Below, piece by piece: positions 25,429-45,670 of a stretch of DNA of 64,000 bases. This stretch comes from Baekduia alba (GTDB lineage: Bacteria; Actinomycetota; Thermoleophilia; Solirubrobacterales; Solirubrobacteraceae): assembly GCF_028416635.1 (NCBI RefSeq), contig NZ_CP114013.1, positions 4,526,001-4,590,000 on the forward strand, given 5' to 3'. Under the pieces are notes generated by a model, which made no database searches, was not told the origin of the DNA, and saw nothing but the letters and a program-made list of their open reading frames with translations. The position numbers and the translations under genes were made by a program. Numbering within the stretch: position 1 is the stretch's first letter; the number at the start of each line of letters is the position of its first letter.

Positions 25429-26216
25429 CGGCGGCGCCCGTCGCCCCGACGCCCGTCCCGGCTCCGGCCCATAGCCGCGTCGACGTCCTCGGCTGCCCTG
25501 TCGACGCGCTCGACATGGACCAGACCGTCGCGCGCTGCACGCAGCTCATCGACGCCGGCGGCTTCCACCAGCACGTCGCCATCAACGCGGCCAAGCTCGT
25601 CGCGATGCGCGACGACCCGCAGCTGCGCGAGATCATCGAGCGCTGCGACGTCATCAGCGCCGACGGGCAGAGCGTCGTCTGGGCCTCGCGCCTGCTGCAC
25701 GCGCCGCTGCCCGAGCGGGTCGCCGGCATCGACCTGATGGACCGCCTGCTGGCCGAGGCCGTGCGCAGCGGCTACGGGGTCTTCATCCTCGGCGCCCGCA
25801 ACGAGGTGCTCGAGGAGGCGGTGCGCCGCATCCGCGTCAAGCACGAGGGCATCGACATCGCGGGCTTCCGCGACGGCTACTTCGCCGACGACGAGGCCGC
25901 CGGCGTCTGCGCGCAGATCCGCGACTCCGGCGCGTCGATCCTGCTCGTGGCGATGAGCTCGCCCAAGAAGGAGCTCTTCCTCGGCGAGTTCGGCCCGAAG
26001 CTCGGCGTCCCGTTCGTCATGGGCGTCGGCGGCGCGATCGACGTCACCGCCGGCATCACGCGCCGCGCGCCGGCCGCGTGGCAGAGCCTTGGGCTGGAGT
26101 GGCTGTACCGCCTGCTCCAGGAGCCGCGGCGGATGTTCCGCCGCTACGCGGTGACCAACACGCAGTTCCTGGTGATGCTGGCGCGCGCGGTCGCGCGCCG
26201 TCAGAGCCCCAAGTAG
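25425..26216 (+). CDS. WecG/TagA/CpsF-family glycosyltransferase (GT26)
   Basis: 263 aa; transfers ManNAc or ManNAcA to a lipid-linked GlcNAc in known members. Visible blocks are INAAKLVAMRDDPQLREII, ADGQSVVWASRLL (with the conserved Asp and Gln), RVAGIDLMDRLL, FILGARNEVLEEA, GYF and MSSPKKELFLGE, and the C-terminal RRAPAAWQSLGLEWLYRLLQ, the membrane-association segment of TagA. It is coupled to wecB. Its last 16 nt overlap tail-to-tail with the end of the convergent gene at 26201. Confidence 0.9.
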   Translation: MTAAPVAPTPVPAPAHSRVDVLGCPVDALDMDQTVARCTQLIDAGGFHQHVAINAAKLVAMRDDPQLREIIERCDVISADGQSVVWASRLLHAPLPERVAGIDLMDRLLAEAVRSGYGVFILGARNEVLEEAVRRIRVKHEGIDIAGFRDGYFADDEAAGVCAQIRDSGASILLVAMSSPKKELFLGEFGPKLGVPFVMGVGGAIDVTAGITRRAPAAWQSLGLEWLYRLLQEPRRMFRRYAVTNTQFLVMLARAVARRQSPK

Positions 26217-28897
26217 GGCGCCAGCACGTCGTACCAGAGCGAGCGGTTGTAGGAGAACCCGTAGTTGGGGTTGTCGCTCTTGTAGACGTACGGGTCGCTG
26301 CTCGGCGCGCCGTAGATCCACTGCGCCTCGCCCTTGGCGTAGCCACGGTAGCCGCGGTCGAGCTTGTACCACAGGTCCGGCTCGCCGATCCGCAGGCGCC
26401 CGATCGCGTTGGTGGCATCCGTGCTCCCGGCCACCCACTGGCCGGACACGGCCAGGACGTAGGCGTTGACGACGTTGACCTTCGCGCCGTCGTAGGCGTA
26501 CTGCGCGGAGCTGCGCGCGCCGCCGGCGTCGCCGGAGTCGAGCTCGAGCGCCATGCCGAGCGCGCCCTTGTTCGCCAGCCCCGAGCAGCCGGAGACGATC
26601 ATGCCGGCCTGCCCGTCGGCGGTGGAGAAGCCGGCGCCGTCGTTGAGCCCGCACGTCACGTGCGCGCCGAACGTATCGTCGGCCAGCGCCCAGTAGAGGC
26701 CCATCGGGTCGGCGACGGTCGTCCCGTAGTACTTGAACGTGCGGACGGCCGACGCGACCTGGCCGGCGGTCGGCGCGACCGAGCCCGGGTTGTCGACCCT
26801 GTAGTTGAAGGTCGCGGCCAGGTTCGTGAGGCCGTTGGCGCGCAGGTCGGCCAGGAACGCCGCCGCGTCGTAGCCGGTCAGCAGCGACTGCGCGGCCGAC
26901 GGGCCGAAGTAGGCGATGGCCTGGACGACGCCGCCGAGCATGCCCTCGCGGTAGTTGGGGTTCCAATCGCGATGCACGTCGGTGTCGCCGTCGAGCGTGC
27001 GCTGCTGGCCGTTGGACGACACGTAGGGGTTGGTGTCGCTGGTCGTGAAGGCCGAGGAGAACAGCGTCCCCTCCATCACGAGGTCGATCTTGTGCTGCTC
27101 GCCGGCGGTGAGCTGGTCCCAGATCCGCGGCGTGCGGCGGGCGATCGCCAGCGTCGCGGTGCCGTAGCGCTCGTGCTGGGCAGGGTAGCCGCCGTTGGAC
27201 ACCGGCTCGTTGCCGCCGGCGATCAGGTCGCGGATCTGCGCGAGCAGGCGGGCGTCGGCGCTGATGTTGCCGGCGTAGGAGGCGGCGGCGAGGACGACCG
27301 ACGGCCCGGTGTTCCACGCGTCGTTGGTCATGCCGCCGCCGTTGTACTGCCGGCCGTAGCGGATGAACGGCACCGCCTTGGCCGCGTCGACGACGCCCTG
27401 GGCGGGGCTGCCGAGCGCGGGCGTGGCGGGCGGGGTGGTGATCGTCCAGGTCGTGGTCGCGGCGGAGGCGTCCGTGTTGCCGGCGGCGTCGGTGGCCTTG
27501 ACCGAGAACGTGTGCGACCCGACGGCACGCGAGCTGTAGGCCTTGGGTGAGCCGCAGGACGCGTAGGCGCCGCCGTCGAGCTTGCACTGGAACGTCGACC
27601 CCGCCTCGGACGCCGTGAACGAGAACGACGCCGAGGTCGACGTCGTCGAGCCCGTCGGCGCCGACGTGATCGTCGTGTCCGGCGCCGTCGTGTCAGGCGG
27701 CGTCGTGATCGTCCAAGAAGCGGTCGCCGCCGACGCATCCGCATTGCCCGCGCCGTCGATGGCCTTGACCGAGAACGCGTGCGACCCGACCGCGAGCGAG
27801 CTGTAGGCCTTCGGCGACGAGCAGGCGACGAACGCACCGCCGTCGAGCTTGCACTGGAACGTCGAACCAGACTCGGACGCCGTGAACGAGAACGACGCCG
27901 AGGTCGACGTCGTCGAGCCCGTCGGCGCCGACGTGATCGTCGTGTCCGGCGCCGTCGTGTCAGGCGGCGTCGTGATCGTCCAAGACGCCGTCGCCGCCGA
28001 GGCATCGGCGTTGCCCGCGCCGTCGGTGGCCTTGACCGAGAACGTGTGCGACCCGACGGCAAGCGAGCTGTAGGCCTTGGGTGAGCCGCAGGACGCGTAG
28101 GCGCCGCCGTCGAGCTTGCACTGGAACGTCGAACCAGACTCGCTCGCGGTGAAGGTGAACGAGGCCGAGGTCGAGGTCGTCGAGGAGGCCGGCTGCGCCG
28201 TGATCGACGTCTCGGGCGCCGTGGTGTCGACGGGATCCGGGACCGGTTCCGGCGCCGGCTCGACCGGCAGCGGGACCTCCGGCGCCGGCGGCACGACGAC
28301 CGGCGGCACGACGACCGGCGGCACGACGACCGGCGGCGGCACGACGACCGGCGGCAGCGTGCCGAGGTCGCCGGGGACGGACGGCGGAGGAGGTGTCGGC
28401 GCGGGCACCGCGGGCGGAAGGGGCGTCATCCCCACGTGCAGTTGCGGGCACGCGGTGCCGGCCTTGCCCGCCGGCCACCTCTTGGGCAGCGCGCTGAGCG
28501 TGCTTGCCGCCCAGGTGCCCCTGCAGCTCCCCGCCGTCGTGACGGCCGCCGAGCCGCCGGTCGCCAGCAGCGCGACCCACGCGCGGGTCCCGCCGGTCAC
28601 ACTCGTGGTCGCGGGCGCCAGCGTGACGCTGCGCCAGCCCGCTGCGGGGCGCTTCAACGTCCCGGACGCCAGCAGCGCGCCCGGACGACCGTCGGCGTCG
28701 GCGTACCACGCGACGGCCAGCCGGCCGCGCGACGCGCTCGCCAGCCTGAGCCCCACGCTCGCCAGCGTGCCGGCGGCGCTCGGCCGCACCGGCGCCGCGT
28801 AGGCCCTGCCGGGCGCGAGCGTCGCGGCCGATGCCGTGTTCGCCGCGCCGAGGAGCGCGCAGACGAGCAGAGCGATGACCAGGGTTCCCCGCCTCAT
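26201..28897 (-). CDS. Secreted protein with Ig-like repeats and an unrecognised C-terminal domain (paralog of 36116-37999)
   Basis: 898 aa. Signal peptide 1-24. A beta-sandwich-like N-domain (25-155) contains AWYADADGRPGALL. A Pro-rich linker follows (156-222), then three near-identical Ig-like repeats of 89 aa (224-490; each DTTAP...GSTFQCKLDGGA...WTITTPP). The C-domain of about 400 aa (495-898) has FIRYGRQYNGGG, IRDLIAGGNEPV, GGYPAQHERYG, LARRTPRIWDQL, GDTDVHRDWNPNYREGM and YRGYAKGEAQWIYG. It looks mostly helical with conserved aromatics, as in alpha/alpha-toroid polysaccharide lyases, but I cannot name a family. The N-domain and C-domain are shared with 36116-37999, which lacks the Ig repeats. 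The function is unknown; I infer a surface glycan enzyme or binder. Confidence 0.8.
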   Translation of the reverse strand: MRRGTLVIALLVCALLGAANTASAATLAPGRAYAAPVRPSAAGTLASVGLRLASASRGRLAVAWYADADGRPGALLASGTLKRPAAGWRSVTLAPATTSVTGGTRAWVALLATGGSAAVTTAGSCRGTWAASTLSALPKRWPAGKAGTACPQLHVGMTPLPPAVPAPTPPPPSVPGDLGTLPPVVVPPPVVVPPVVVPPVVVPPAPEVPLPVEPAPEPVPDPVDTTAPETSITAQPASSTTSTSASFTFTASESGSTFQCKLDGGAYASCGSPKAYSSLAVGSHTFSVKATDGAGNADASAATASWTITTPPDTTAPDTTITSAPTGSTTSTSASFSFTASESGSTFQCKLDGGAFVACSSPKAYSSLAVGSHAFSVKAIDGAGNADASAATASWTITTPPDTTAPDTTITSAPTGSTTSTSASFSFTASEAGSTFQCKLDGGAYASCGSPKAYSSRAVGSHTFSVKATDAAGNTDASAATTTWTITTPPATPALGSPAQGVVDAAKAVPFIRYGRQYNGGGMTNDAWNTGPSVVLAAASYAGNISADARLLAQIRDLIAGGNEPVSNGGYPAQHERYGTATLAIARRTPRIWDQLTAGEQHKIDLVMEGTLFSSAFTTSDTNPYVSSNGQQRTLDGDTDVHRDWNPNYREGMLGGVVQAIAYFGPSAAQSLLTGYDAAAFLADLRANGLTNLAATFNYRVDNPGSVAPTAGQVASAVRTFKYYGTTVADPMGLYWALADDTFGAHVTCGLNDGAGFSTADGQAGMIVSGCSGLANKGALGMALELDSGDAGGARSSAQYAYDGAKVNVVNAYVLAVSGQWVAGSTDATNAIGRLRIGEPDLWYKLDRGYRGYAKGEAQWIYGAPSSDPYVYKSDNPNYGFSYNRSLWYDVLAPYLGL
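27428..28228 (-). repeat. Three tandem 267-bp repeats encoding Ig-like modules
   Basis: Units at about 28228-27962, 27961-27695 and 27694-27428 have an 89-codon period. Units 2 and 3 are identical over long runs, including their synonymous positions, around 27601-27715 and 27868-27982, pointing to recent duplication or gene conversion. The same unit type occurs five times, more diverged, in the gene at 42494-45670. Confidence 0.85.
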
Positions 28898-28962: not shown

Positions 28963-29925
28963 TCAGACGATCGGGACGCGGTACCGCACGGCGCCCTTGA
29001 CCGTCGCCGCGACCTCGACGACGTCGTTGAGCACGTAGAACGGCATGTGCGCCGTGCCGCCGCCCTGCGCCTTGGCCCGGCCGCGGACGTTCATGAGGTA
29101 GGGCAGCGCGAAGAGCGCGGTGATCGGCGCCTTGCGCGTCGTGGCCGCCGCCAGCGCCGCCTGCAGCAGCAGCGGGTGCGTGCGCCGGTAGAAGACGCCC
29201 TGGGGCAGCAGGGCGCGCAGCTCCGGGTTGGCCTTGTAGGTCCGGACGTCCTCGGCGGCGCGCAGCGCGAACTTCAGCACGCCCTTGGGCCCGATCTGGT
29301 GCACGGCGTGGAAGACAAGCGCGTCGGGGGTGAACACGGGGGCCACGCCGTCGCCGACCGCGCGGAAGCCGAGGTCGGTGTCCTCCCCCGCGGGCGCCGG
29401 GTAGTTTTCGTCGAAGCCGCCGAGCCGCTCCAGCACCGCGCGCGGGTAGGCGATGTTGCAGGTCTCGTAATGCGGGCTCTGCGTCGGCAGGTCCAGCGTG
29501 CGCGCGAACGGGCTCATGCCGTCGATCTCGCGCGGGTCCGGCGCGGTGCGGCCCTGGACCAGGACGTCGTCGCGATCGCCCAGCGTCTCGAGCAGCGTCG
29601 CCAGCCACTCGGGCGACGGGCGGCAGTCGTCGTCGGTGAACGCGACGACCGGCGCGGTCGCCGTCCGCCAGCCGCGGTTGCGCGCCGCGGCCGGGCCGCC
29701 CGCCTTGGGCTGCGTGAGCACGGTCAGCGCCAGCGGGCCGGCGGCGGCCGCCCGCGCGAGCACCTCGGGCGTCGCGTCGCGCGAGCCGTCGTCGACGACG
29801 ACCACGTCGAAGCGGTCGGTGCCGAGCGTCTGCCCGGCGAGCGCGTCGAGCAGGATCTGGACGCGCTCGGCGCGGTTGTGCGCGGCGGCGACGACGGTGA
29901 TCAAGGGCGCGTTGGCAGTGGACAT
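28963..29925 (-). CDS. Family 2 glycosyltransferase
   Basis: 320 aa, GT-A fold. TVVAAAHNRAERVQILLDAL at the N-terminus, then VVVVDDGSRD (nucleotide binding), GGPAAARNRGW, FTDDDCRP (DxD metal site) and the acceptor region ETCNIAYPRAVLERLGGFDE with GEDTDLGFR. A C-terminal hydrophobic helical part (LLQAALAAATTR, ALFALPYLMN) suggests membrane attachment. It probably adds one sugar to the lipid-linked unit. The ATG at 29925 lies 17 nt after the stop of the upstream beta-helix gene. Confidence 0.9.
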   Translation of the reverse strand: MSTANAPLITVVAAAHNRAERVQILLDALAGQTLGTDRFDVVVVDDGSRDATPEVLARAAAAGPLALTVLTQPKAGGPAAARNRGWRTATAPVVAFTDDDCRPSPEWLATLLETLGDRDDVLVQGRTAPDPREIDGMSPFARTLDLPTQSPHYETCNIAYPRAVLERLGGFDENYPAPAGEDTDLGFRAVGDGVAPVFTPDALVFHAVHQIGPKGVLKFALRAAEDVRTYKANPELRALLPQGVFYRRTHPLLLQAALAAATTRKAPITALFALPYLMNVRGRAKAQGGGTAHMPFYVLNDVVEVAATVKGAVRYRVPIV

Positions 29926-29942: not shown

Positions 29943-31034
29943 CTATCTGGTCGGCCGATCGGTGGGCCCGCACTTGGCCCGCGACCAGCGGTTGTGCATG
30001 TACGTGATCCGGTCGTCGCACTGGTAGGCCTTCATCGGCGCGACGTTGCGCGACAGCACCCAGCGCTGCACGACGTCGCCCGCGGCCGGCAGCGCCCACG
30101 CCTGGTTCGAGCGGTTGCGCGTGATGTGCACGCCGATGCCGTTGCGCACCGACAGCGAGTAGTACGCGGGCGTGACTCCTGAGTGGTCGCTCGTGGCGCC
30201 GAAGAAGTTGTCCTCGATGACGACGTCGCGCACCGGGCCGCCGACGGTGCCGGCGATGTGCAGGTCGAACGTGTCGCAGCGCACGAAGCTCGAGCCGCGC
30301 ACGGTCAGCCGCTGCACGTCGGAGATCTGCAGGCACTCGATGTGCTTGCCGGCGGTCCGGACCTGCCAGTCGTGGAAGCGCACGCCGTCGAACAGGATGT
30401 TGCGCGGCACGATCGGCGGCTGCGCGCCGTAGACGGCGGACACGTCGGGGTGGAAGTCGGCGCCCGGGCCGACGCTGCCGCCGACCATCGCGAAGTTCGT
30501 CGAGCCCTCCAGGAACAGCCCGCCGGCGACAGTGACCCGGCGCAGCGTGACGCGGTCGCAGCGGTGGATCAGGACGCCCGCGACCGTGACGCCGCCGAGG
30601 TCGAACGCGCCCGCGCCGACGTCGCCGGTCCACGGCCCGCAGCGCAGCTCCTCGAACGCGACCTTCGCGCCGGGCGCCGGCCGGACCACGACGGGCGCGC
30701 TGCCCGCCGGCCGAGCGTCGCTCTTCAGGATCTGCGGGCCGTACCGGCCGGCGGCCAGCTGCACGCCGGCGCCCGGCTTCGCCTTGCCCAGCGCGGCGTC
30801 CAGGCTCCCGCACGGGGCAGCGGCCGTGCAGTCCTCACCGGTCGCGCCCGGCGCCACGAAGATCGTCGGCGCGACGCGCTTGGGCTCGGGCGGCGCGGGG
30901 ATGCCGATGTGCTTCGGCGTGGCCGCGGTCGCGTCGGGCACGGCGTCCGAGCCGCCGTCGAAGACTCGCGGCCCGAGCGTGCCGAGCAGCGCCGCGGCGC
31001 CCAGCAGCAACGCGGCGAGGGCCAGCAGTCGCAC
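29943..31034 (-). CDS. Secreted right-handed parallel beta-helix protein, short form (paralog 1)
   Basis: About 363 aa from GTG 31034: an N-terminal hydrophobic anchor or signal (VRLLALAALLLGAAALLG), a linker, then a pectate-lyase-like beta-helix: TIFVAPGATGEDC, VRPAPGAKVAFEEL, LRRVTVAGGLFLEG, FDGVRFHDW, CLQISDVQRLTV, DHSGVTPAYYSLSVRNG. It matches 38002-39852 along the helix but ends at CGPTDRPTR and lacks the final SGFVNA...DIGPYE strand found in the other two paralogs. No start codon of standard type exists further upstream in frame before the previous stop, yet RALRSATPTSPRGP there would make a better signal n-region, so a CTG start at 31082 (CTGA overlap) is possible. The function is presumably glycan binding or cleavage. 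Confidence 0.75.
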   Translation of the reverse strand: MRLLALAALLLGAAALLGTLGPRVFDGGSDAVPDATAATPKHIGIPAPPEPKRVAPTIFVAPGATGEDCTAAAPCGSLDAALGKAKPGAGVQLAAGRYGPQILKSDARPAGSAPVVVRPAPGAKVAFEELRCGPWTGDVGAGAFDLGGVTVAGVLIHRCDRVTLRRVTVAGGLFLEGSTNFAMVGGSVGPGADFHPDVSAVYGAQPPIVPRNILFDGVRFHDWQVRTAGKHIECLQISDVQRLTVRGSSFVRCDTFDLHIAGTVGGPVRDVVIEDNFFGATSDHSGVTPAYYSLSVRNGIGVHITRNRSNQAWALPAAGDVVQRWVLSRNVAPMKAYQCDDRITYMHNRWSRAKCGPTDRPTR

Positions 31035-31075: not shown

Positions 31076-32203
31076 TCAGCCCTGGAGCGCCGACTCGCGA
31101 CCGGCCCACGCCTCGAGGGTCCAGCCCATCGAGTACGGACGGTCGGTCGGGTTGACCTCGGTCAGGCGCGCGGTGCGCCCCGGCGTCGGCAGCCCGGCGC
31201 GCGACGCGGCGGTGCGGGCGGCCAGCGCGCCGCGGTCCGGGCCCTTGCGGCGGCGGATCGAGCGCAGGACGAGCTGCTCGCCCGGCTCGACCATGTCGCG
31301 GGCGAGCTCGTTCTGCCCCCAGATCCAGCGCAGGCCGTGGCCGACGGCGCGCACGTAGCGCTCGTCGCCGCAGACCTCGGCGAGGTCCAGCAGCGCCATC
31401 GGCGCCATCGCGTGCTGATGGACGCAGTAGATCTCGTAGCGCTCGACGACGGTGCCGCGCTCGGCGTCGAACAGCCACGGCCAGCCGCCGTCGGGAAGCT
31501 GGAGCTCCAGCAGCCGGTCGGCCAGCGCCTGGGCGGCCGGCAGCGCGCGCGGGTCCAGCCCGTGGCGCGCGACGGCGGTCAGCGCCTGCACGGCGTAGAT
31601 CTGCGTGGCGAAGTTCGGGAAGCGCCGGCGCCAGCCCGCGGCGCCGTGGTGGCGGAACAGGCCGCTCTGCGCGCGGTTGGCGCCGAGCAGCTGGTCCAGC
31701 GCGCGTGCCAGCAGGCGCTCGCCCTCGACGCCGCCGCCGGCCGCGACGTGATGCGCCAGCCCGGTGACGATCCAGCCCATCTCCATGCCCAGCCGCGCGG
31801 GCAGGCCGCCGCCGGAGGCCAGCGCGACGTCCAGGCGGGCGGCGTAGCCGGCGCCGCGGCCCCAGCCGCCGCGCGCGTCGGCCCAGAGGTACAGGCCGTA
31901 GTCGCCCGGGTCCAGCTCGGCGTCGTCGAGGTTGGCCTCCAGCGCGGCCTCGACCTGCGCGAGGTCGAGCGTCGGCGCGTAGCCGGCAGCTTGCGCCTTC
32001 TGGAGGCCGAGCAGCGCCATCAGCGTGTAGCGCAGGGAGCGGCCGCGCGTGCCGGCCTCGCCGAGGACGCGCTCGTAGCAGAGCACGCCGGGCTCGTCGG
32101 CGCGGGCGAACGTAGGGATCGAGGCCAGCGCGAGCTCGACGAGGCCGCCGACCTCGTCGCGCGTGGCCTCGGGCACGGTGGTGGTCTTCGCCGTGGTCGT
32201 CAC
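31076..32203 (-). CDS. Putative alpha/alpha-toroid protein of unknown function
   Basis: 375 aa, no signal peptide or membrane helix, so cytoplasmic. It is mostly helical with repeated small-residue/aromatic helices: LRYTLMALLGLQKAQAAGY, YGLYLWADARGGWG, MEMGWIVTGLAHHVAAGG, FATQIYAVQALTAVARHG, LELQLPDGGWPWLFD (resembling a QW-type motif of terpene-cyclase-like toroids) and EIYCVHQHAMAPMALLDLAE. This suggests an alpha-barrel as in sugar epimerases, GH-like or prenyltransferase-like proteins. I do not recognise the family. The start is GTG 32203 within the GT4 stop (GTGA), so it is coupled to glycan assembly. Confidence 0.65.
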   Translation of the reverse strand: MTTTAKTTTVPEATRDEVGGLVELALASIPTFARADEPGVLCYERVLGEAGTRGRSLRYTLMALLGLQKAQAAGYAPTLDLAQVEAALEANLDDAELDPGDYGLYLWADARGGWGRGAGYAARLDVALASGGGLPARLGMEMGWIVTGLAHHVAAGGGVEGERLLARALDQLLGANRAQSGLFRHHGAAGWRRRFPNFATQIYAVQALTAVARHGLDPRALPAAQALADRLLELQLPDGGWPWLFDAERGTVVERYEIYCVHQHAMAPMALLDLAEVCGDERYVRAVGHGLRWIWGQNELARDMVEPGEQLVLRSIRRRKGPDRGALAARTAASRAGLPTPGRTARLTEVNPTDRPYSMGWTLEAWAGRESALQG

Positions 32204-33570
32204 AGGGTGCTCCCGGTCAGCGCCGGCGGGCCGGCGGTGGTCGTGTCGGTGGGTCGGCTCGCCAGCGCGCCGTCGAAGGCGCGGGCGAGCTCGCGGTTCA
32301 GGTGGGCGCGCTCCAGGCCGGCCAGCAGCCAGCCGCGCTGCGCGGCGACCGACGGGCGGCGCGTGCCGCGCAGCGCCTCGGCGGTGATCGCGGCGGCCAT
32401 GCCGTCGACGTCGTCGGGGCGGACGACGGTCGACGCCTCCGCCCGCGAGAAGATCTCGCGCCCGTCGCCGTCGGGCATCGCGGCGAGGATCGGCCGGCCC
32501 GAGGCGAGGTACTCATAGCCCTTGCACGGGACCATCCGGGCGCGGTGGCCGGTGGGCAGGTCCTGCATCGGCAGGAACAGCAGGTCGGCGGAGCGGATCA
32601 GCGCGATCGTCTCGTCGTGACTGCGGTAGCCGAGCAGCTCGACCCCGTCCAGGCCCTCGACCGCGCGGCGGTCGGCGTCGGTCAGCGGGCCGGCCAGGTG
32701 CAGCTCGATGCGGCCGGCGAGCTCGGGGTGCTCGGCCAGGACGCGGTCCAGCGCGCGGCGCAGGAAGACGGGCGAGCGCGTGAGCACCTCGACCGGCTGG
32801 TCGGCGCCGCCGCCCAGCAGCGCGCGGCGGCGGGCCGAGGCGGCCAGCGACTCGCCGAGCGCCGTGTGGAAGCTCCCGGTGTGGACGATGCGGAAGGCGT
32901 CGTCGGCCCGGACCGGCTCGGGCGCGGCGAAGTCCGCGGCGTCGTAGCCGACCGGGAGCGCCAGGACCGTGCGGTCGCGCAGCGGCGGGAAGGCGTCGCG
33001 CAGCGCGGACGCCGCCTCGGCGGTGTTCATCACGACGACGTCGGCGGCGGTCACCGCGCGGCGCATGCCGGCGCGGTCGGCGCGCCGGTGCCCGGCGGTC
33101 GGGTAGACGCGCATCTCGTCCAGCGCCCACGGGTCGCCCATGTCGATCACCAGCGGGACGCCGCGCTCGCGAGCCACGCGGACGCCGGCGTGCGCGGTGG
33201 CGTCCGGGCCGAGGTCGGCGTAGACGAGGTCGACGTCGGCGACCTCGCGCGCGGTCGCGACGAAGCCCTCGCGCAGCCAGCTCTCCCACGAGCCCGGCCG
33301 GGCCAGGAGGCGGTCGACGCGGTCGCGCGTCGTGCCGCCGTGCGGCGGCTCCGGCGTCGCGATGCGATGGACCTCGACGTCGCCGAGCAGCGCGCGCAGC
33401 GTGTCGTCCTGCGGGCTGAAGCGCCCGAACGACTCGCCCGGGCCGGTCACGACGACGGGCTGGTAGCCCAGCGCCGGCAGCCGCTGCACGAGCGTGACGC
33501 CGCGCAGCGCGCCGGCACCGCCCAGCGGCGGGAAGAAGTAGTTGAGGATCAACACCCGGCGCAGGGCCAT
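32200..33570 (-). CDS. GT4-like glycosyltransferase
   Basis: 456 aa, GT-B fold. The N-terminus LILNYFFPPLGGAGALRG has the family's glycine loop, followed by VYADLGPDATAHAG and VIDMGDPWALD. The C-terminal donor domain has FRIVHTGSFH, LHLAGPLTDADRRAV, LLGYRSHDETIALIRSADLL and the nucleotide-sugar site KGYEYLASGRPILAAMPDGD (Glu of the E-x7-E type motif). The ATG at 33570 overlaps the flippase stop (TGATG). It sits between a flippase and the toroid-like gene in one transcription unit. Confidence 0.87.
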   Translation of the reverse strand: MALRRVLILNYFFPPLGGAGALRGVTLVQRLPALGYQPVVVTGPGESFGRFSPQDDTLRALLGDVEVHRIATPEPPHGGTTRDRVDRLLARPGSWESWLREGFVATAREVADVDLVYADLGPDATAHAGVRVARERGVPLVIDMGDPWALDEMRVYPTAGHRRADRAGMRRAVTAADVVVMNTAEAASALRDAFPPLRDRTVLALPVGYDAADFAAPEPVRADDAFRIVHTGSFHTALGESLAASARRRALLGGGADQPVEVLTRSPVFLRRALDRVLAEHPELAGRIELHLAGPLTDADRRAVEGLDGVELLGYRSHDETIALIRSADLLFLPMQDLPTGHRARMVPCKGYEYLASGRPILAAMPDGDGREIFSRAEASTVVRPDDVDGMAAAITAEALRGTRRPSVAAQRGWLLAGLERAHLNRELARAFDGALASRPTDTTTAGPPALTGSTL

Positions 33571-38001: not shown

Positions 38002-39852
38002 TCACTGCCCTTCGTATGGCCCGATGTCGGGCGTAGCGTCGCGGGCCTTCCCGCGGAGGTCGTACTGCGTGCTCAGCGCGGGGTCGCCGCCGTTGAGCAT
38101 CTTGGAGCCGCTGGCCGGGCGGTAGTCGTTGTTGCCGGCGTTGACGAACCCCGACGCGCCCTTCCTGTCCGTGCTGCCGCACGTCGCGTCCGTCCACAGG
38201 TTGTGGCTGAACGCGATCCGGTTGTCGCACTGGTTGGACCCCAGCACCGCCGCGTTGTTGGCCACGGTCCAGTTCTGGACGGTGTCCGACGACGACGGCA
38301 GCGCGAAGGCCTGGTCGGAGGCGTTGTTGCGGATCATCACGCCGAGCCCGTCGCGGACCGACAGCCCGTAGTAGGCCGGCGTCGCGCCGCTGTGGTCGGT
38401 GCTCGGGCGGAACGTGTTGTTCTCGATCACGACGTTCTGGACCGGGCCGGAGACCGTGCCGTCCACATGCAGGTCGAACGTGTCGCAGTTCTCGAACGTC
38501 GAGTTGCGCAGCGTGAAGTTCACGACGTCGGAGACCTGCAGGCACTCCATGTGCACGTTGGTGTCGTCGTGCGTCCAGTCGTGGAAGCGCACGCCCTCGA
38601 AGAGCACGTCGTGGGGGACGCTGCCGTTCACGACCTGCACGTCGGGGTGGTAGTTGTGGCCCGGGCCCATGCTGCCGCCGACCATCGAGAAGCGCGTGGA
38701 CCCGTCGACGAACACGCCGCCGGCCATCGTGACGCGGCGCAGCGTGAAGCCGTTGCAACGCTGGGTCAGGACGTCGCCCGTGGTCATGTCGGCGAGCTCG
38801 ACCTGGTTGGGCCCGAGGTCGCCGGCGTACTTGCCGCAGTGGACCTCACCGGTCTTGACGCTCGCGCCCGGCGCCGGGCGGAACACGACGACCGCGCCGG
38901 TCGCCGACTTGCTCGAGTCCGCGGTCATGTCCTGCACGCCGTAGGTGCCGCCCGCGACCTGCACGAGCTGGCCCGGCTTGGCGACGTGGTAGGCGCGGTC
39001 GAACGTCGCGCACGGCGCGCCCGCGCTGCACGCGGCGCCGTCGTTGCCGTTGGGCGCGACGAACACCGAGGGCGAGGAGACCGACGGCTCGGGCGGCGCG
39101 GTCAGGCCGGCGGGCTTGCCGCTGGCCGGCGTGCCGGGGCCCGACGGCGCGGCGGGCGGCGCCGCCGGCGGGGTCGCGCCGGCCACGGGAGCGGCGGTCG
39201 CTGGCGTGGACCTGCCCGCGGCGCCGACCTTCGTCACGCTGCCGTCGGCGCCCTGCACGGTCGCGTCGGACGACGGCGTGTAGGCCACGAACTTCCCGCC
39301 GCTGAGGCGGTAGTAGGTCGCGACGTCGCGCGTGGTCTTGTTCGCCAGCCGCTCGCGCTCGACGACGCGGATCTCGGTCGCGCCGGCGTTGGCGCCGGAG
39401 ACCTGGACGAGCTCGACCCGCGAGCCGGCCCAGCGCTTGCGCAGCGACGAGCGCCGCGAGTCATAGCGGAACAGCGACCCCGCGTGCCGGCCGTTCCACG
39501 ACAGCAGCGCGGCGACGGTGCGCGCCGGGGCCTTGCGCGTGGTCCGGGCGACGTACCAGACGTCCTTGCGGCCGTCGCCCGTGACGTCGGCGACGTCGAG
39601 CGCCGACATGCGGCGCGCCTTCGGCGACAGCCACGTGATGACGGTCTTGCCCGAGCGCCGGTCGCGCACCTGCAGGCGCACCCAGCCGCCGGACAGGTGG
39701 GCGGCGCGCACGGTCTCGGCGCGGGCGTCGGAATCCAGGTTGGCCCGAACGTTGCTCGGGGTGCGCGCCAAAGCGACGGCCGCGGGAATCGCGACCGCCA
39801 GCAGGGCGACGAACAGCATGAAGCTGAGGGGCGACCGCAGCGCGATGCGCAT
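38002..39852 (-). CDS. Secreted protein with FG-GAP-like head and right-handed beta-helix (paralog 2)
   Basis: 616 aa. Signal peptide 1-29. Residues 30-190 carry FG-GAP/VCBS-like calcium loops (NLDSDARAE, DVTGDGRKDVW). A Pro/Ala-rich linker (195-260) follows, then the beta-helix (265-616): VFVAPNGNDGAACS, VQVAGGTYGVQDM, LRRVTMAGGVFVDG, FEGVRFHDW, CLQVSDVVNFTL, DHSGATPAYYGLSVRDG, ending DATPDIGPYEG. The start is fixed by GGAGGA 3 nt before the ATG. It is the first gene of a pair with 36116-37999. Likely a cell-surface glycan-binding or lyase-like protein; no catalytic residues can be assigned. Confidence 0.85.
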   Translation of the reverse strand: MRIALRSPLSFMLFVALLAVAIPAAVALARTPSNVRANLDSDARAETVRAAHLSGGWVRLQVRDRRSGKTVITWLSPKARRMSALDVADVTGDGRKDVWYVARTTRKAPARTVAALLSWNGRHAGSLFRYDSRRSSLRKRWAGSRVELVQVSGANAGATEIRVVERERLANKTTRDVATYYRLSGGKFVAYTPSSDATVQGADGSVTKVGAAGRSTPATAAPVAGATPPAAPPAAPSGPGTPASGKPAGLTAPPEPSVSSPSVFVAPNGNDGAACSAGAPCATFDRAYHVAKPGQLVQVAGGTYGVQDMTADSSKSATGAVVVFRPAPGASVKTGEVHCGKYAGDLGPNQVELADMTTGDVLTQRCNGFTLRRVTMAGGVFVDGSTRFSMVGGSMGPGHNYHPDVQVVNGSVPHDVLFEGVRFHDWTHDDTNVHMECLQVSDVVNFTLRNSTFENCDTFDLHVDGTVSGPVQNVVIENNTFRPSTDHSGATPAYYGLSVRDGLGVMIRNNASDQAFALPSSSDTVQNWTVANNAAVLGSNQCDNRIAFSHNLWTDATCGSTDRKGASGFVNAGNNDYRPASGSKMLNGGDPALSTQYDLRGKARDATPDIGPYEGQ

Positions 39853-40000: not shown

Positions 40001-41521
40001 CTATCGGACGAGCGTGACGGAGGGACCCGCGACAGGCCGCTTGCACAAGCGGCATGCCGGGATCGCGATGCCCATCAAGGCGAACATCAAGAAGGTGCAT
40101 TGGAAGAACGAGAAGGCGTCGAACGTCAACGCGCCAACCGCGAACGACGCGATCGACCCCGCCAGCCCGATCAGCAGCCAGCTGTAGGGCTCCTCCGCCT
40201 TGCGTGACGCGCTGGCCGTTCGCCGCACCGACGAGCAGATCAGCCAGAGGAGGCCGATCACCCCCAGCAGACCCGTCTCCAGCAGGCTGGCCAGCCACTG
40301 GTCGTCGAGGATCGCGGCGTTGAGGTTCGGATCCGCCGGCGCGGTGATCCGTGTGCCGAAGCCCTCGCCGAAGACGGGCTTCTTGGACCACTCGGCGATC
40401 GTCGGGCCCCAGTCGGCCAGGCGGTTGGACGACGTCATGCCCGCCTGCGTCTGCTGCTCGGCGACGATCCCGCCCGACGGGAAGAACGCGCTCTTGAGGC
40501 CGCCGATCGCGCCCGGCGCGAGGAAGTGCACGACGACCAGGAACGGCAGCAGCCACGGCCACAGCGACAGCACCTGGCGCGGCTTGAGCGCGAGGTAGGT
40601 GAAGAAGATGACCAGCAGCATCACCGAGCCGGTGCGCGCGACCGTCGCGAACGCCGCGACGCCGATCAGCGCGGTGGCAAACCACCAGCGCTTGCCGCCG
40701 AACGCCTTGCCGAGGTAGATGCCCAGCGGCAGCAGCATCACCAGCGCGGCCGAGAGCGCGATCGGGTGCGGCGCCGAAGCGTAGATCCGGGCGCCGCTGC
40801 CGCGCGCCTCGATGTGGTCCGGCACGCCGCCGGGCACGAGGCGCAGGATCGGGATGCCCCGGTCGAGGTGGTCGAAGATGTTGAAGCCCGAGTGGTACTG
40901 GATGATCGCGAAGAACGAGACCACCGCCCCGCCGCCGACCAGCGCCTTGATGACGAGGTTGAGGTGGTCGCGCGTCGCGATCACCGCGCTGAAGAACAGC
41001 AGGACGAACAGGAAGCTGGCGAACATGCTCACCTGCTTGATCACCGCCGACTGCACGCCCGGCAGCGCGAGCCGGTCGGGGTTCAGCCCGATCCCGCCGA
41101 TGATCGTGATCGACAGCAGGAACAGCGGCAGGAACAGCCCGGTCCGGCGCCAGCGCGTGTCGGGCTGGGCCAGCAGCGACGCGCCCCAGATCAGCGCCAC
41201 CACCGCGACCAGCGCCCGGTAGGGCTCGAGGTTGAACGGCAGCGTGACCGGGAAGTCGTAGCGCCCGATCGGGATCAGCAGGATGCACAGGATCACCGTG
41301 ACCGCCAGCGAGTGCCAGCGGAGGACGACCTTGTGCGTGGCGAACGCGATCAGCGCGCCGTCGACCACCACGGCGCCGGCGAGGGCGCCCTTGGCGCCGG
41401 CGACGACCGTCGCGGCCAGCAGCAGGACGGCGGCGAGCGCGAAGCCCACGACGGCCAGCGTGGGCGGCGCCGTGCGTCCGGGGGGCGTGACCCGGACGGG
41501 CGGAAGCGCGGTGGTGGCCAT
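40001..41521 (-). CDS. O-antigen ligase/polymerase-like membrane protein (Wzy/WaaL superfamily)
   Basis: 506 aa with about 11 membrane helices. A large extracytoplasmic loop holds FNIFDHLDRGIPI and GARIYASAPHPIALSAAL, followed by the block GEGFGTRI preceded by WSKKPVFG, which is the Wzy_C signature of O-antigen ligases/polymerases. It probably joins flipped repeat units into polymer or transfers it to an acceptor. It follows the Wzz-like gene with a 12-nt gap in the same unit, the standard polymerase/chain-length pairing. Confidence 0.88.
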   Translation of the reverse strand: MATTALPPVRVTPPGRTAPPTLAVVGFALAAVLLLAATVVAGAKGALAGAVVVDGALIAFATHKVVLRWHSLAVTVILCILLIPIGRYDFPVTLPFNLEPYRALVAVVALIWGASLLAQPDTRWRRTGLFLPLFLLSITIIGGIGLNPDRLALPGVQSAVIKQVSMFASFLFVLLFFSAVIATRDHLNLVIKALVGGGAVVSFFAIIQYHSGFNIFDHLDRGIPILRLVPGGVPDHIEARGSGARIYASAPHPIALSAALVMLLPLGIYLGKAFGGKRWWFATALIGVAAFATVARTGSVMLLVIFFTYLALKPRQVLSLWPWLLPFLVVVHFLAPGAIGGLKSAFFPSGGIVAEQQTQAGMTSSNRLADWGPTIAEWSKKPVFGEGFGTRITAPADPNLNAAILDDQWLASLLETGLLGVIGLLWLICSSVRRTASASRKAEEPYSWLLIGLAGSIASFAVGALTFDAFSFFQCTFLMFALMGIAIPACRLCKRPVAGPSVTLVR

Positions 41522-41533
41522 CGCGGACGCCGG

Positions 41534-42370
41534 CTAGGCGCTGGGCCGGACCTTCTCGGCCGGCGGCTCGACGGTGACGGGCGGCCAGGCCTTGTGATCG
41601 TCGATGCGCGCGGTCGCCCCGTCGGTCCATGCCCCCTCGTCGATCGGGTCCTCGAGGCGCAGCCCGGCGTTGCGGACCGGCGTCGGGTAGAGGTTCTCGA
41701 GGATGTAGAGGAGCAGCAGGGTGCCGACCATGATCAGGACGAACGCCACGACGCTCAGCGTCGGGGTGCGGCCGCTCTCGATCTTGCCGGGCAGCGGCGG
41801 GTTGAGGACCTGGATCTGCACGCGCTGGCCGTCCGGCACGTTGCTCTTGTCGAGCTGCGCGTTGAGGTAGCCCTTCATCGCCTTGATGGCCTTCTCGTTG
41901 AGCTGCTGCGCGCCGATGGCGGTGTTGCCCTTGGCGGTCAGCTCGAGCAGCGGCAGCGCGTCGCCGGAGCCGGTCGCCTGCCAGATCACGTTGATCTGGC
42001 CGGGCTCGGGCAGCGGGCGGATCAGCGCGCGGACCTCGTCGGACTGGGCGAGGTAGGCGTACACGATCGCGAGGTTCGAGAAGCGCGCCGGGTCGGCGAA
42101 GTCGACGCCGTCGGCCTTGTCGGCCGGCGTCGGCGCGGCCGAGGCCTGGCCGCTGACCGCGCCCGGGAGCGTGACGCGGCCCCACGGGAAGCCCGGCTGG
42201 GTGACGAAGAGGCGCGACTTGGTGGCGTACACCGCCTCGCTCCGCCACTCCAGGCCCGCGCCCGCCGGCTTGAACGTCGCGAAGATGCCGAGCACGATGG
42301 CGAGGAGGAAGCCCACGATCAGGAGGAGCTTCCACCGCATCCAGACGCGAAGGTGGTGCCTGAGGTCCAT
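41534..42370 (-). CDS. Wzz-like chain-length determinant
   Basis: 278 aa. Two membrane helices flank an extracytoplasmic domain: LLLIVGFLLAIVLGIFATF near residue 20 and SVVAFVLIMVGTLLLLYIL near 220, preceded by LNPPLPGKIESGR, the Pro-Gly segment usual before TM2 in Wzz proteins. The loop contains helical TAKGNTAIGAQQLNEKAIKAM. No kinase domain follows, unlike Wzc/CapAB. It sets polymer length with the adjacent polymerase. The ATG at 42370 lies 6 nt after TACGAT. Confidence 0.82.
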   Translation of the reverse strand: MDLRHHLRVWMRWKLLLIVGFLLAIVLGIFATFKPAGAGLEWRSEAVYATKSRLFVTQPGFPWGRVTLPGAVSGQASAAPTPADKADGVDFADPARFSNLAIVYAYLAQSDEVRALIRPLPEPGQINVIWQATGSGDALPLLELTAKGNTAIGAQQLNEKAIKAMKGYLNAQLDKSNVPDGQRVQIQVLNPPLPGKIESGRTPTLSVVAFVLIMVGTLLLLYILENLYPTPVRNAGLRLEDPIDEGAWTDGATARIDDHKAWPPVTVEPPAEKVRPSA

Positions 42371-42376
42371 GCCCGG

Positions 42377-42452: not shown

Positions 42453-42484
42453 GCCGGACGAACGGTCGATGCCGTTCGCCCGGC
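42453..42484. terminator. Terminator of the beta-helix/Ig gene
   Basis: GCCGG-A-CGAACGG pairs with CCGTTCG-C-CCGGC: 12 bp with one A/C mismatch around TCGATG. It starts 9 nt after the stop of the gene at 42494-45670, so it ends that leftward transcript. Confidence 0.7.
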
Positions 42485-42493
42485 GCCCCGGAA

Positions 42494-45400
42494 TCAGGAC
42501 TCGTTGAGGCCCGCGATGCAGAGGCCGCCGCGGGCGATCTGCAGCGAGGCCCTGCCGCTCTTGTCGAGGCGGAGCGTGCGCGTGACCTTCGCCGCCGGCC
42601 GGCCCTCGACACAGGAGGTGAGCGTCACCCTGACCTTCTTGCCCGCGGCGCCGGTCAGCGTCAGCGCGGTGGCGTCGGCGCCCGCCGCAGCTGAGCGGGC
42701 GCTGAGCGTCGCGGCCTTCGCGGCGGCCTTGGCCGCCTTGCCGGTGCCGCGAACCAGCAGCGCCCACGAGCTGGCCTGGCCGGCGTCGTCGAAGGCCCGC
42801 ACCGTGAGGGTGTGCGCGCCGCCCGACAGGAGGCCGGTCCGGTAGGTGGCGGTCGGCTTGGACGACGAGGAGACGACCTTGCCGTCGACCAGGAACTCGA
42901 CGGTCTGGACCGTGCCGTCGTCGGTCGCGGAGGCCGCCAGCGTCGCCGCCGACGGAGCCGACGCCGTGACGCCGCGGACCCGGACGTTCAGCCTCGGCGC
43001 CTTGTTGTTGCCCTTGCCGGGCTTGGCGGCCGTCGTGGCCGGCCCGGTCGGGCGCGGCGTGGTCGGTGCGATCGGCGTGGTCGGGGCCGCCGGCGCGGCT
43101 GGCGCGGCCGGCGCCGGATCGGTGACCGCCGGCGTACCGGCGTCGACGCCCGGCAGCGGCGGCAGCGCCACGGTCCAGGTCGTGGTCGCCGGCGAGGCGT
43201 CGGTGTTGCCGGCCGCGTCGACGGCGCGCACCTGGAAGGTGTGCGTGCCGAACGCCAGCCCGTCGACCTGCTCGGGCGACGTGCAGGCGTGCCAGGCGCC
43301 GTCGTCGACCCGGCACTCGAAGCGCACGCCGCCGTCGGGCGAGGAGAACGTGAGGGTCGCCGAGCCGGTGAGCTCGACCAGCAGCGGGCCGCCGCCGATC
43401 GTCGTCTCCGGCGCGCGGGTGTCGACCGTGAACGTCACCGAGGCGGGCGTCGCGTCGGTGTTGCCCGCGGCGTCCTTGGCGCGCACCGCGATCGTGTGCT
43501 CGCCGTCGACCAGCGCGGACGGCGTATACGGGCTGGAGCAGGCCTTCCAGGCGCCGCCGTCGACGCGGCACTGGAACGTCGAGCCCGGCTCGGTCGCGGA
43601 GAGCGCGAGCGACGGCGTGGGGTCGGCGGTCGTGCCGGTCGGGCCCGAGTCGATCGCCGTGTCCGGCGCGGTGGTGTCGGCCGGGGCGTTGACCGTCCAG
43701 CTCGACGTCGCCGGCGAGGCGTCGGTGTTGCCGGCCGCGTCGGTGGCGCGCACGCTGAAGGTGTGCGCGCCGGTCGTCAGCGCGCTGTAGGCCTTGGGCG
43801 AGGCGCAGGAGCCCCATGCCCCGGCGTCCAGCTTGCACTCGAACGTGGAGCCCGACTCCGTGGCCGTGAATGAGAACGACGCGGAGGTCGAGGTCGTCGG
43901 CGAGGACGGCTGCGCGGTGATCGTCGTGTTCGGCGCGGTGGTGTCGGCCGGGGTGCCGATCGTCCAGGTCACGGTCGCCGGCGAGGCGTCCGCGTTGCCC
44001 GCCGCGTCGGTCGCCTTGACCGAGAACGTGTGGTCGCCGATCGCGAGCGAGCTGTAGGCCTTGGGCGACGTGCACGACGCGTAGGCGCCGGCGTCGAGCT
44101 TGCACGCGAACGTCGAGCCGGACTCCGAGCTGCTGAAGGAGAACGAGGCGGACGTCGCGGTGGTCGGCTGCGTCGGCTGCGCGGTGATCGTCGTGTCCGG
44201 CGCGGTGGTGTCGGCCGGCGACGTGACCGTCCACGTCGCGGCGGCCGCCGTGGCGTCGGTGTTGCCGGCGGCGTCGGTGGCGCGCACGCTGAACGTGTGC
44301 GAGCCGGTCGCGAGCGAGCTGTAGGCCTTGGGCGACGTGCACGCCGCGTAGGCGCCGGCGTCGAGCTTGCACGCGAACGTCGAGCCCGACTCGCTGGCGC
44401 TGAACGAGAGCGACGCCGACGTCGAGGTCGTCGAGCCCGTGGGCGCGGCGGTGATCGTCGTGTCCGGCGCGGTGGTGTCGCCGGGCGCCGTGCTGGAGCC
44501 GAGCTCGTAGGCGCCGGCGTCGGGCGCGCCGCCGGCCGGGCGGGCGTTGCCCTCGATGTCGGTGGTCGGGAAGCTCGCGGGGTCGCCGTGGTTGACGGCG
44601 GGCGACGAGCTCTTGAGGTGGTAGTCGGTGGCGCTGGCGAAGCCGGGGTCGCCGACGTACTGGTCGGTGGAGCCGCAGGGGCCGGCGTCGCGCCAGGCGA
44701 CCGCGATCCAGACGTTGTGGGAGTAGGTCGCGTAGGAGTGGCAGAAGTCCTTGTCCAGGACGTTGCCGATGACCTTGAAGTTGCTGGCGCCGGCGCCGTC
44801 GTCGGGCATGTACCAGCCGGCGGGCGAGCTGTTGTTGCGGATCGTGACGTTGACGCCGTTGCGGATCGAGAGGCCGTGGTAGGCCGTCAGGCAGCCGCAC
44901 GAGTTGGTCGGCTCGTCGAAGGTGGAGTTCTCGATGGTGATGTTCTTGACGCCCCACTCCGTGTTCTGGATGTGCAGGCCGAAGGTGTCGCAGTTGGGGC
45001 CGAAGTGCGAGTTGCGGATCGTCAGGCCGTCGACGTCGGAGACCTGCAGGCACTCGACGTGGTCCTGGGCCGTGGCGACCAGGACGTCGTGCAGGTGCAC
45101 GCCGTCGATCAGGATGTTGCTGGAGGGCACGGTCGTCGAGCCGGACTTCCAGACCTGGATGTCGGGGTGCGTGCCGTTGTTGGTGCCGCCGACCGAGCCG
45201 CCGATGATCGAGATGCCGTCGGCGCCGTTGGTCCAGAAGTTGCCGTGCATGTCGAGGTTGCGGAACGTGAGGTCCTGGGCCCGGTTGGCCGTGAACCCGT
45301 CGATGTCCATATCCTGGATCGTCATGTGCCGACCGCCGAGATCCGCGTAGTACTGCCCGAAGTCCAGGAAGCCGACCTTCGGCACCGCGCCCGCCGCCGG

Positions 45401-45670
45401 CTTGAAGGTCACGTCGACGTCCGAGCTCTTGGAGGCGTCGTAGGACAGGACCTGGTCGCCGTAGGTGCCACCGGCGACCTGGACGGTGTCGCCCTGCGCG
45501 GCCGCGGTGTAGGCGCGGCCGAAGGACTTGCACGGCGCCGCGCTGGTGCACGCGGCGGAGTCCGAGCCGGACGGCGAGAGGTACAGCGTGGACGCGCTCG
45601 CCGCGCCGGCGAAGGCGAGCAGCAGGCAGAGCGCGAGCAGCGCACAGCGAAGTGGGCGGAACGAAGACAT
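42494..45670 (-). CDS. Secreted beta-helix protein with five Ig-like repeats (paralog 3)
   Basis: 1058 aa. Signal peptide 1-27. Beta-helix about 28-385: TLYLSPSGSDSAACTS, VQVAGGTYGDQVLS, LTFRNLDMHG, CLQVSDVDGLTIRNS and DAGAYELG close the coil as in paralog 2. Five Ig-like repeats of about 89 aa follow (about 397-837; first ones GSTFACKLDAGAY, later ones more diverged), then a Pro/Ala linker, another Ig-like domain (about 893-985; EFLVDGKVVSSSSKP) and a C-terminal strand-rich end. ATG 45670 has GGAAGGG upstream. It stands alone with a 281-nt leader and its own terminator. Probably a stalk-mounted surface glycan protein. Confidence 0.85.
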   Translation of the reverse strand: MSSFRPLRCALLALCLLLAFAGAASASTLYLSPSGSDSAACTSAAPCKSFGRAYTAAAQGDTVQVAGGTYGDQVLSYDASKSSDVDVTFKPAAGAVPKVGFLDFGQYYADLGGRHMTIQDMDIDGFTANRAQDLTFRNLDMHGNFWTNGADGISIIGGSVGGTNNGTHPDIQVWKSGSTTVPSSNILIDGVHLHDVLVATAQDHVECLQVSDVDGLTIRNSHFGPNCDTFGLHIQNTEWGVKNITIENSTFDEPTNSCGCLTAYHGLSIRNGVNVTIRNNSSPAGWYMPDDGAGASNFKVIGNVLDKDFCHSYATYSHNVWIAVAWRDAGPCGSTDQYVGDPGFASATDYHLKSSSPAVNHGDPASFPTTDIEGNARPAGGAPDAGAYELGSSTAPGDTTAPDTTITAAPTGSTTSTSASLSFSASESGSTFACKLDAGAYAACTSPKAYSSLATGSHTFSVRATDAAGNTDATAAAATWTVTSPADTTAPDTTITAQPTQPTTATSASFSFSSSESGSTFACKLDAGAYASCTSPKAYSSLAIGDHTFSVKATDAAGNADASPATVTWTIGTPADTTAPNTTITAQPSSPTTSTSASFSFTATESGSTFECKLDAGAWGSCASPKAYSALTTGAHTFSVRATDAAGNTDASPATSSWTVNAPADTTAPDTAIDSGPTGTTADPTPSLALSATEPGSTFQCRVDGGAWKACSSPYTPSALVDGEHTIAVRAKDAAGNTDATPASVTFTVDTRAPETTIGGGPLLVELTGSATLTFSSPDGGVRFECRVDDGAWHACTSPEQVDGLAFGTHTFQVRAVDAAGNTDASPATTTWTVALPPLPGVDAGTPAVTDPAPAAPAAPAAPTTPIAPTTPRPTGPATTAAKPGKGNNKAPRLNVRVRGVTASAPSAATLAASATDDGTVQTVEFLVDGKVVSSSSKPTATYRTGLLSGGAHTLTVRAFDDAGQASSWALLVRGTGKAAKAAAKAATLSARSAAAGADATALTLTGAAGKKVRVTLTSCVEGRPAAKVTRTLRLDKSGRASLQIARGGLCIAGLNES
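43160..44480 (-). repeat. Five Ig-like repeats of about 89 codons
   Basis: Units begin near 44480, 44215, 43945, 43680 and 43415. Each carries DTTAPDT or a variant and a TFxCKLDxGA or TFQCRVDGGA core. They are more diverged than the three repeats at 27428-28228 but clearly of the same type. Confidence 0.75.

What the first reader, a model, noticed from the sequence alone, without database searches (positions are those of the whole stretch)
26201..45670. Beta-helix plus unknown-domain secreted protein pairs inside a polysaccharide locus
Two paralogs (26201-28897 and 36116-37999) share a C-terminal domain of about 390-400 aa with motifs GGNEPV, GGYPAQHER, RRTPR and DWNPNYREG that I cannot assign. 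Each lies by a beta-helix paralog: 36116-37999 starts 2 nt after 38002-39852, and 26201-28897 is next to the unit holding 29943-31034. A third beta-helix protein is at 42494-45670. Conserved Gly-Gly-Tyr, His-Glu-Arg and Trp-Asn-Pro-Asn-Tyr clusters in a helix-rich domain look catalytic. I infer a surface glycan lyase/modifying pair co-made with the polymer.
Basis: partly seen in the sequence, partly recalled or inferred. Interest (0 to 1): 0.85.

Follow-up and report, generated by a model that had tools for sequence, protein, structure and literature searches.

The report
Unassigned secreted domain in polysaccharide operons
Two secreted-looking proteins in a bacterial polysaccharide gene cluster share a domain that the checked family libraries do not name; most of its few known relatives sit beside sugar-polymer-cutting or deacetylating genes, so it is probably a new enzyme that trims such polymers.

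Summary
Two secreted-looking proteins (26201-28897, 36116-37999, minus strand) share a C-terminal domain of about 395 aa, 60% identical. Each ends a tight predicted operon that also holds a beta-helix gene (flippase...beta-helix-GT-C-domain; polymerase-beta-helix-C-domain). The domain has no credible Pfam, NCBIfam or PDB sequence match. Searches found five more copies in four genomes of the phylum of a Planctomycetota assembly (41-45% identity), none in 150 relatives and none in the other 395 sampled genomes of the window's own phylum. Four of those five loci have a glycan-modifying gene close by: alginate lyase plus heparinase-II/III-like; GH30-like plus a beta-helix; deacetylases. A moderate-confidence model is helical; Foldseek found nothing significant, but a structural second look ranks alpha/alpha-toroid polysaccharide lyases first (Z about 9), suggestive only. 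A fixed beta-helix/C-domain pair is not supported: relatives keep the beta-helix in the polymer locus without the C-domain, and the one outside beta-helix neighbour is not a close relative of the window's. Best reading: an unassigned family of secreted glycan-cleaving enzyme, probably toroid and possibly a lyase, present twice in the cell's own polymer locus. Fold, chemistry and substrate are unproven.

The parts
26201..28897 (-). Secreted-looking protein 1 (898 aa): signal-like N-terminus, N-region, Big_13 Ig-like repeats, C-domain
   Evidence: (Big_13 34.5 bits, cut-off 27, 3 stretches); signal read by eye
26201..27415 (-). C-domain copy 1 (protein residues 495-898, with stop)
28963..29904 (-). 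GT2 glycosyltransferase between beta-helix 1 and C-domain protein 1
29943..31034 (-). Beta-helix paralog 1 (363 aa)
   Evidence: no Pfam match itself; 53% to paralog 2
31076..32203 (-). 375-aa protein of unknown family in the same run
   Evidence: no match
32200..33570 (-). Glycosyl transferases group 1 type glycosyltransferase
   Evidence: (Glyco_trans_1_4, scanned in a longer frame)
33570..34994 (-). Wzx-type flippase, first gene of run A
   Evidence: Polysacc_synt_3 E 3.8e-86; the name Wzx is my label
36116..37999 (-). Secreted-looking protein 2 (627 aa): signal-like N-terminus, N-region 40% identical to protein 1 over 124 aa, Pro/Ala-rich linker, C-domain
   Evidence: signal read by eye
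36116..37297 (-). C-domain copy 2 (protein residues 235-627, with stop)
38002..39852 (-). Beta-helix paralog 2 (616 aa), 2 nt upstream of C-domain protein 2
40001..41521 (-). Wzy-type polymerase/ligase
   Evidence: Wzy_C 35.7 bits, cut-off 31.7
41534..42370 (-). Wzz-like chain-length protein
   Evidence: no Pfam or NCBIfam match; label from position and sequence look only
42494..45688 (-). Beta-helix paralog 3 with Ig-like repeats
24229..25428 (+). UDP-GlcNAc 2-epimerase (WecB)
   Evidence: TIGR00236 309 bits, cut-off 210
25425..26216 (+). WecG/TagA-type glycosyltransferase
   Evidence: superfamily cut-off met; ManNAcA- and ManNAc-transferase equivalog cut-offs not met

Best explanation
The C-domain is a family of secreted glycan-cleaving enzyme that the checked libraries do not name, probably with an alpha/alpha-toroid fold. 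In this genome it stands, as two paralogs, at the end of two operon-like runs that make a Wzx/Wzy-type surface polysaccharide, each run with a beta-helix protein. I infer that it cuts the cell's own polymer outside the membrane (trimming, turnover or release). On a uronic-acid polymer the expected chemistry of such toroids is beta-elimination; candidate residues are Tyr77 and His81 as acid/base and Asn152, Asn154, Arg149 and Arg156 for carboxylate neutralisation (numbering of C-domain copy 1). Shown: homology, gene order, lack of a known family in the libraries searched, context of homologs. Weakly shown: toroid fold. Inferred: secretion (signal peptides by eye), cleavage, lyase chemistry, residue roles, own polymer as substrate.
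For: Gene order. Homologs that are little more than signal plus domain in L009 and L084, and homologs followed by PKD, or PKD plus dockerin, modules in L085 and L086, a build common in carbohydrate enzymes. Glycan-modifying neighbours: Alginate_lyase PF05426 E 4.2e-85 and Hepar_II_III_C 34.6 bits (cut-off 24) in L086; GH30C (25.6 bits, cut-off 22), Beta_helix and PIG-L in L017; Polysacc_deac_1/DUF2334 overlapping by 4 nt in L009; PIG-L in L085. VIA-align rows: PL15 Z 9.4 (rmsd 4.4, 244 aligned), a chondroitinase 9.2, PL38 9.1, PL35 8.8, GH76 8.3. 77 columns invariant in 7 copies, with one His and invariant Y, N, R, D and E. WecB, a WecG-type transferase and a nucleotide-sugar dehydrogenase in or near the locus.
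Against: Mean pLDDT is 60.6, and the segments under 50 (18-35, 74-78, 133-154, 208-210, 247-313, 343-387) hold most of the conserved clusters. Foldseek: no PDB hit under E 0.001, top rows transcobalamin and ERAP1, toroid lyases at ranks 4 and 5 with E 1.3; nothing in viral models. By its own note the VIA score is not above what helical models reach without clear kin. hhalign scores to PL5 and heparinase-type alignments (16.9, 18.7) lie within those of 20 column shuffles. In the toroid lyases tabled in PMC12088678 the neutralising residue precedes the catalytic Tyr by 51-63 residues; no invariant Tyr lies there after N152 or N154. L084 has no glycan-cutting gene among the neighbours checked. 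Six invariant acidic residues would also suit a hydrolase.
Confidence: 0.57

Rival explanations
1. The C-domain is an alpha/alpha-toroid glycoside hydrolase, using an acidic pair rather than beta-elimination.
For: GH76, GH116 and GH81 rows mix with lyases at Z 6.8-8.3 (family labels partly from row titles, partly recalled). Invariant E82, D127, E157, E291, D296, D347. The GH30-like neighbour in L017.
Against: The highest structural rows are lyases; an alginate-lyase gene and a heparinase-type gene adjoin the L086 copy.
Confidence: 0.25
2. The C-domain is a non-catalytic polysaccharide-binding or anchoring module that holds the polymer at the surface.
For: Repeats and linkers precede it in the window proteins; no activity is known; close linkage to polymer genes.
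Against: L009 and L084 encode little else than the domain behind a signal-like stretch. It has 27 invariant D/E/H/K/R/N/Q/Y/W residues in 7 copies, more like an enzyme.
Confidence: 0.1
3. The enzyme digests other organisms' glycans, and its place in the polymer locus is incidental.
For: The L017 and L086 contexts look catabolic (AraC-type regulator, GH30-like, alginate lyase).
Against: In this genome 2 of 2 copies end runs with Wzx- or Wzy-type genes.
Confidence: 0.2

Closest known systems
AlgG (beta-helix epimerase) and AlgL (alginate lyase) of bacterial alginate producers; PMC4444821, passages read
   Same: A beta-helix protein and a separate, probably toroid, glycan enzyme outside the inner membrane of the polymer's producer. 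That algL lies in the same gene cluster is recalled.
   Different: No match to PF05426; DPHD motif absent from the three beta-helix paralogs; Wzx/Wzy-type locus; nothing here points to alginate.
RbmB, lyase of Vibrio polysaccharide; PMC11637428, abstract and section list read
   Same: A secreted enzyme that cuts the producer's own exopolysaccharide.
   Different: Lyase mechanism supported there, not here. That RbmB is a beta-helix protein encoded among the vps genes is recalled; if so it resembles the beta-helix partner rather than the C-domain.
PL5/PL38-type alginate lyases (PF05426)
   Same: PL38 is of similar length and helical, Z 9.1; a PF05426 gene adjoins the L086 copy.
   Different: No PF05426 match, no NNH motif, hhalign at the level of shuffles.
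PL15/PL17/PL21/PL35 heparinase-type lyases
   Same: Top structural rows include PL15 and PL35 (family names).
   Different: No Hepar_II_III match; L009 and L084 end after the helical domain, without the beta-sheet domain those families carry.

Membership tests
PL5/PL38-type alginate lyase | Match to PF05426 | tested here: not met
   0 of 4 members of A2 at E 10; the L084, L085 and L086 C-domain proteins also without it at E 0.01
PL5/PL38-type alginate lyase | Alpha/alpha toroid or barrel fold | tested here: inconclusive
   VIA Z 9.1, rmsd 4.4, 219 aligned to 8bdq (PL38); no Foldseek E under 0.001; pLDDT 60.6
PL5/PL38-type alginate lyase | NNH motif followed by R and Y after the next helix (seen in L020 and L086 PL5-type sequences; its catalytic meaning is recalled) | tested here: not met
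   WNPN and no NNH in either window copy; no invariant Tyr 51-63 residues after WNPN. A functional equivalent elsewhere is not excluded
Heparinase II/III-type lyases (PL15, PL17, PL21) | Match to Hepar_II_III profiles | tested here: not met
   no match for the C-domain proteins scanned
Heparinase II/III-type lyases (PL15, PL17, PL21) | C-terminal antiparallel beta-sheet domain after the toroid | tested here: not met
   L009 and L084 proteins end at the helical domain; feature from passages of PMC12088678
AlgL-like role (own-polymer lyase of a producer) | Co-encoded with polymer synthesis and export genes | tested here: met
   both copies in the window; not so in the five outside loci as far as read
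AlgL-like role (own-polymer lyase of a producer) | Cleaves the polymer by beta-elimination | not testable with these tools
   needs purified enzyme and polymer
Ntox15 domain | Sequence match over the domain | tested here: inconclusive
   E 0.049 over profile positions 189-272 only; probably chance

The most novel reading that the evidence does not exclude
The domain founds a new family of polysaccharide lyase with its own active-site signature (GGY..QHE, R.WNPN.REG), shared between polymer-making loci of a high-GC bacterium and polymer-degrading loci of Planctomycetota.
Probability: 0.42. Interest if true: 0.65.

Novelty: new variant of a known kind. Interest (0 to 1): 0.5.

Why it matters
If true, it adds an unrecognised glycan-cleaving family that the family libraries searched here miss, and gives a defined tool for a polymer whose composition is unknown. 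It would also be a case, outside alginate, of a beta-helix protein and a separate helical enzyme built into a polymer's own synthesis genes, which makes the question of why producers encode cutters of their own polymer testable in a new lineage.

Tried and rejected
Fixed beta-helix/C-domain pair: rejected as a general rule. Phage or plasmid origin: no tblastn match at E 0.01 in 50,697 phage and 72,556 plasmid records; three scans of viral contigs matched 21, 16 and 3 stretches by pattern, none confirmed. G722 row at E 0.0096: 47 residues inside a frame that reads like an unrelated outer-membrane protein (by eye), dropped as chance. Remote homology by hhalign to PL5 and heparinase types: single-sequence runs gave probabilities of at most 1.3% and alignment runs stayed within 20 column shuffles; the top local match there puts WNPN opposite the PL5 NNH region, but it has no statistical weight. 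Some loci were read in a wrong or short frame (L023, L024, L031, L032, L035 among them) and carry no meaning. Viral fold search: nothing. Weak family rows taken as chance: EdmS E 0.1 in 1 of 4 members, phmmer rows at E 0.21 and 1.2, E 1.4. Literature: no paper holds the motif strings; listings for Solirubrobacter with exopolysaccharide and Thermoleophilia with polysaccharide lyase, searched on my guess at the organism, showed none on this domain; open-licence papers only.

A structural family not listed is not excluded. CAZy itself could not be searched. Genome searches scored only some first-look candidates per genome (up to 4 in the larger ones), so absence is not absolute.

Full report
OBSERVATION. 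The two ORFs are real and on the minus strand. Gene calls by codon-position G+C place them in two close minus-strand runs. Run A: flippase 33570-34994, group-1 glycosyltransferase 32200-33570, unknown 31076-32203, beta-helix 29943-31034, GT2 28963-29904, C-domain protein 1 26201-28897. Run B: a Wzz-like protein 41534-42370 (no family match, my label), Wzy_C 40001-41521, beta-helix 38002-39852, C-domain protein 2 36116-37999, the last two 2 nt apart. That these are operons is inferred from spacing. The C-domains are 60% identical at 453 bits; of 200 shuffles the best reached 27.7 bits. Their N-terminal regions are also related, 40% over 124 aa, which fits duplication of a whole gene; the tree of seven copies joins the two at full support. 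Ig-like repeats of protein 1 match those of beta-helix 3 at 57-74% in three overlapping pieces, so modules are shared between the two kinds of protein.

FAMILY. The domain matches nothing in Pfam or NCBIfam beyond one chance-level row and nothing credible in PDB sequences (best profile E 0.049, an Ntox15 fragment, taken as chance). The own genome has two copies. None of 150 relatives has one (E 0.001) and none of the other 395 genomes sampled from the phylum; these sets overlap. A scan of species genomes by short exact peptides, which reaches close relatives only, found one, in a Planctomycetota assembly. Profile searches around that genome found 2 true hits among 392 genomes of its phylum (a third row is chance), 1 of 23 (the same set), 1 of 26 and 3 of 397 of its class; these sets overlap too, and only some candidates per genome were scored. 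In all, five further copies in four genomes: L009, L017, L084, L085 and L086, 41-45% identical to copy 1. The G+C of the window copies is that of their neighbours, so there is no compositional sign of recent arrival.

CONSERVATION. Seven copies share 77 invariant columns. There is one invariant histidine (81), invariant tyrosines 77, 182, 306, 350 and 356, and six invariant acidic residues.

FOLD. The only useful model (three sequences) has mean pLDDT 60.6 and pTM 0.72 and is mostly helical; several conserved clusters lie in segments under 50. Foldseek found nothing under E 0.001 in PDB or viral models; its first PDB rows are transcobalamin and ERAP1, with PL35 and PL15 lyases at ranks 4 and 5. 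The VIA second look ranks PL15 alginate lyase (Z 9.4), a chondroitinase (9.2), PL38 alginate lyase (9.1), PL35 (8.8) and GH76 (8.3) first, with further toroid lyases and hydrolases below. The tool's note gives a typical best Z of 7 to 8 for models without clear kin, and 14 for five mostly helical ones, so this is suggestive, not proof. Sequence profiles do not link the domain to PL5 or heparinase-type lyases. Passages of PMC12088678 give the catalytic residues of toroid lyases; the domain lacks an invariant Tyr at their spacing from the neutralising residue, so its active site must differ if it is a lyase.

CONTEXT ELSEWHERE. L086: a homolog with PKD and dockerin modules, convergent with a PF05426 alginate lyase gene (E 4.2e-85), with a Hepar_II_III_C gene next to that. 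As a rough guide, one search listed 28 PF05426 matches over cut-off in 119 genomes of that phylum, so one within a few kb of any of five loci by chance is unlikely (under 1 in 100 by my own estimate, which ignores clustering of such genes). L017: a homolog with an AraC-type regulator, a GH30-like protein (GH30C over cut-off, barrel model just under), a beta-helix protein and a PIG-L deacetylase; the window's beta-helix proteins do not match that beta-helix at E 1e-3, so it is at most a distant one. L009: gene start overlaps by 4 nt the end of a polysaccharide deacetylase/DUF2334 gene. L085: convergent with a PIG-L gene, the further neighbours scanned being an HNH nuclease and a glycosyl transferase family 4 gene about 6.5 kb away. 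L084: neighbours scanned are ankyrin, flavin oxidoreductase, restriction-modification, YkuD, FKBP, LpxK and aminotransferase proteins and one without a match; none cuts glycans by name. So 4 of 5 outside loci have a glycan-modifying gene close by; L009 and L086 are contigs of only about 7 kb, and not every ORF of the loci was scanned.

BETA-HELIX PARTNER. Of 101 genomes searched (own included), 8 have the beta-helix family at E 1e-20. Fetched regions cover 15 of the 17 matches in relatives; 5 of those 12 regions hold Wzx- or Wzy-type homologs (L064, L066, L067, L071, L073), and none holds a C-domain (hits of C-domain protein 1 there are to its Ig-like repeats). So the beta-helix is a more widespread part of this kind of polymer locus and the C-domain a rare addition. 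The beta-helix profile matches an alginate lyase chain in PDB weakly (E 3.2e-4).

SUBSTRATE. The region holds WecB (above cut-off), a WecG/TagA-type transferase and, about 1.8 kb beyond the window, a nucleotide-sugar dehydrogenase (TIGR03026 above cut-off; UDP-ManNAc dehydrogenase models next, below cut-off). A uronic acid such as ManNAcA in the polymer is therefore plausible, which a lyase would need; it is not shown.

MECHANISM. Precedents: AlgG and AlgL of alginate producers (PMC4444821, passages) and RbmB for VPS (PMC11637428, abstract). It works like these at most by analogy; membership in PL5/PL38 or heparinase-type families was tested by sequence and not met.

VERDICT. Real, unassigned by the libraries searched, with good circumstantial support as a glycan enzyme; the pair idea is only partly right. 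Interest 0.5.

Noticed in passing
31076-32203 (-): 375-aa protein without an evident signal, in the flippase run, no Pfam, NCBIfam or PDB sequence match; looks helical by eye.
   Followed up: partly
own genome 3689946-3691055, locus L061: Fourth beta-helix gene, 92.6% identical to beta-helix 3 over 377 aa; no homolog of the window's glycosyltransferases in the 20 kb around it: a recent duplicate outside the locus.
   Followed up: partly
46830-51563 and 52964-58648 (-): Very large proteins; the first has DMFA2_C, Big_5 and DUF4082 domains and is about 50% identical over 1560 aa to one in a same-genus polymer locus (L064). The second was not scanned.
   Followed up: no
L064 354-923, L009 1996-3411, L017 15522-16169, L085 57-863: Deacetylase-type genes (Polysacc_deac_1 or PIG-L) recur by the beta-helix locus of a relative and by three C-domain loci, hinting at N-acetylated sugars in the substrate.
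   Followed up: no
L086 5-2200: C-domain protein carries PKD repeats and a dockerin type I match (25.8 bits, cut-off 22.9).
   Followed up: no
L073 (G051) 4479-13345: Three beta-helix matches in a row beside Wzy-type, Wzz-like and GT homologs: expansion of the beta-helix family in one polymer locus.
   Followed up: no
L084 5108-6858: XhoI-type restriction endonuclease next to a DNA methylase near a C-domain gene.
   Followed up: no
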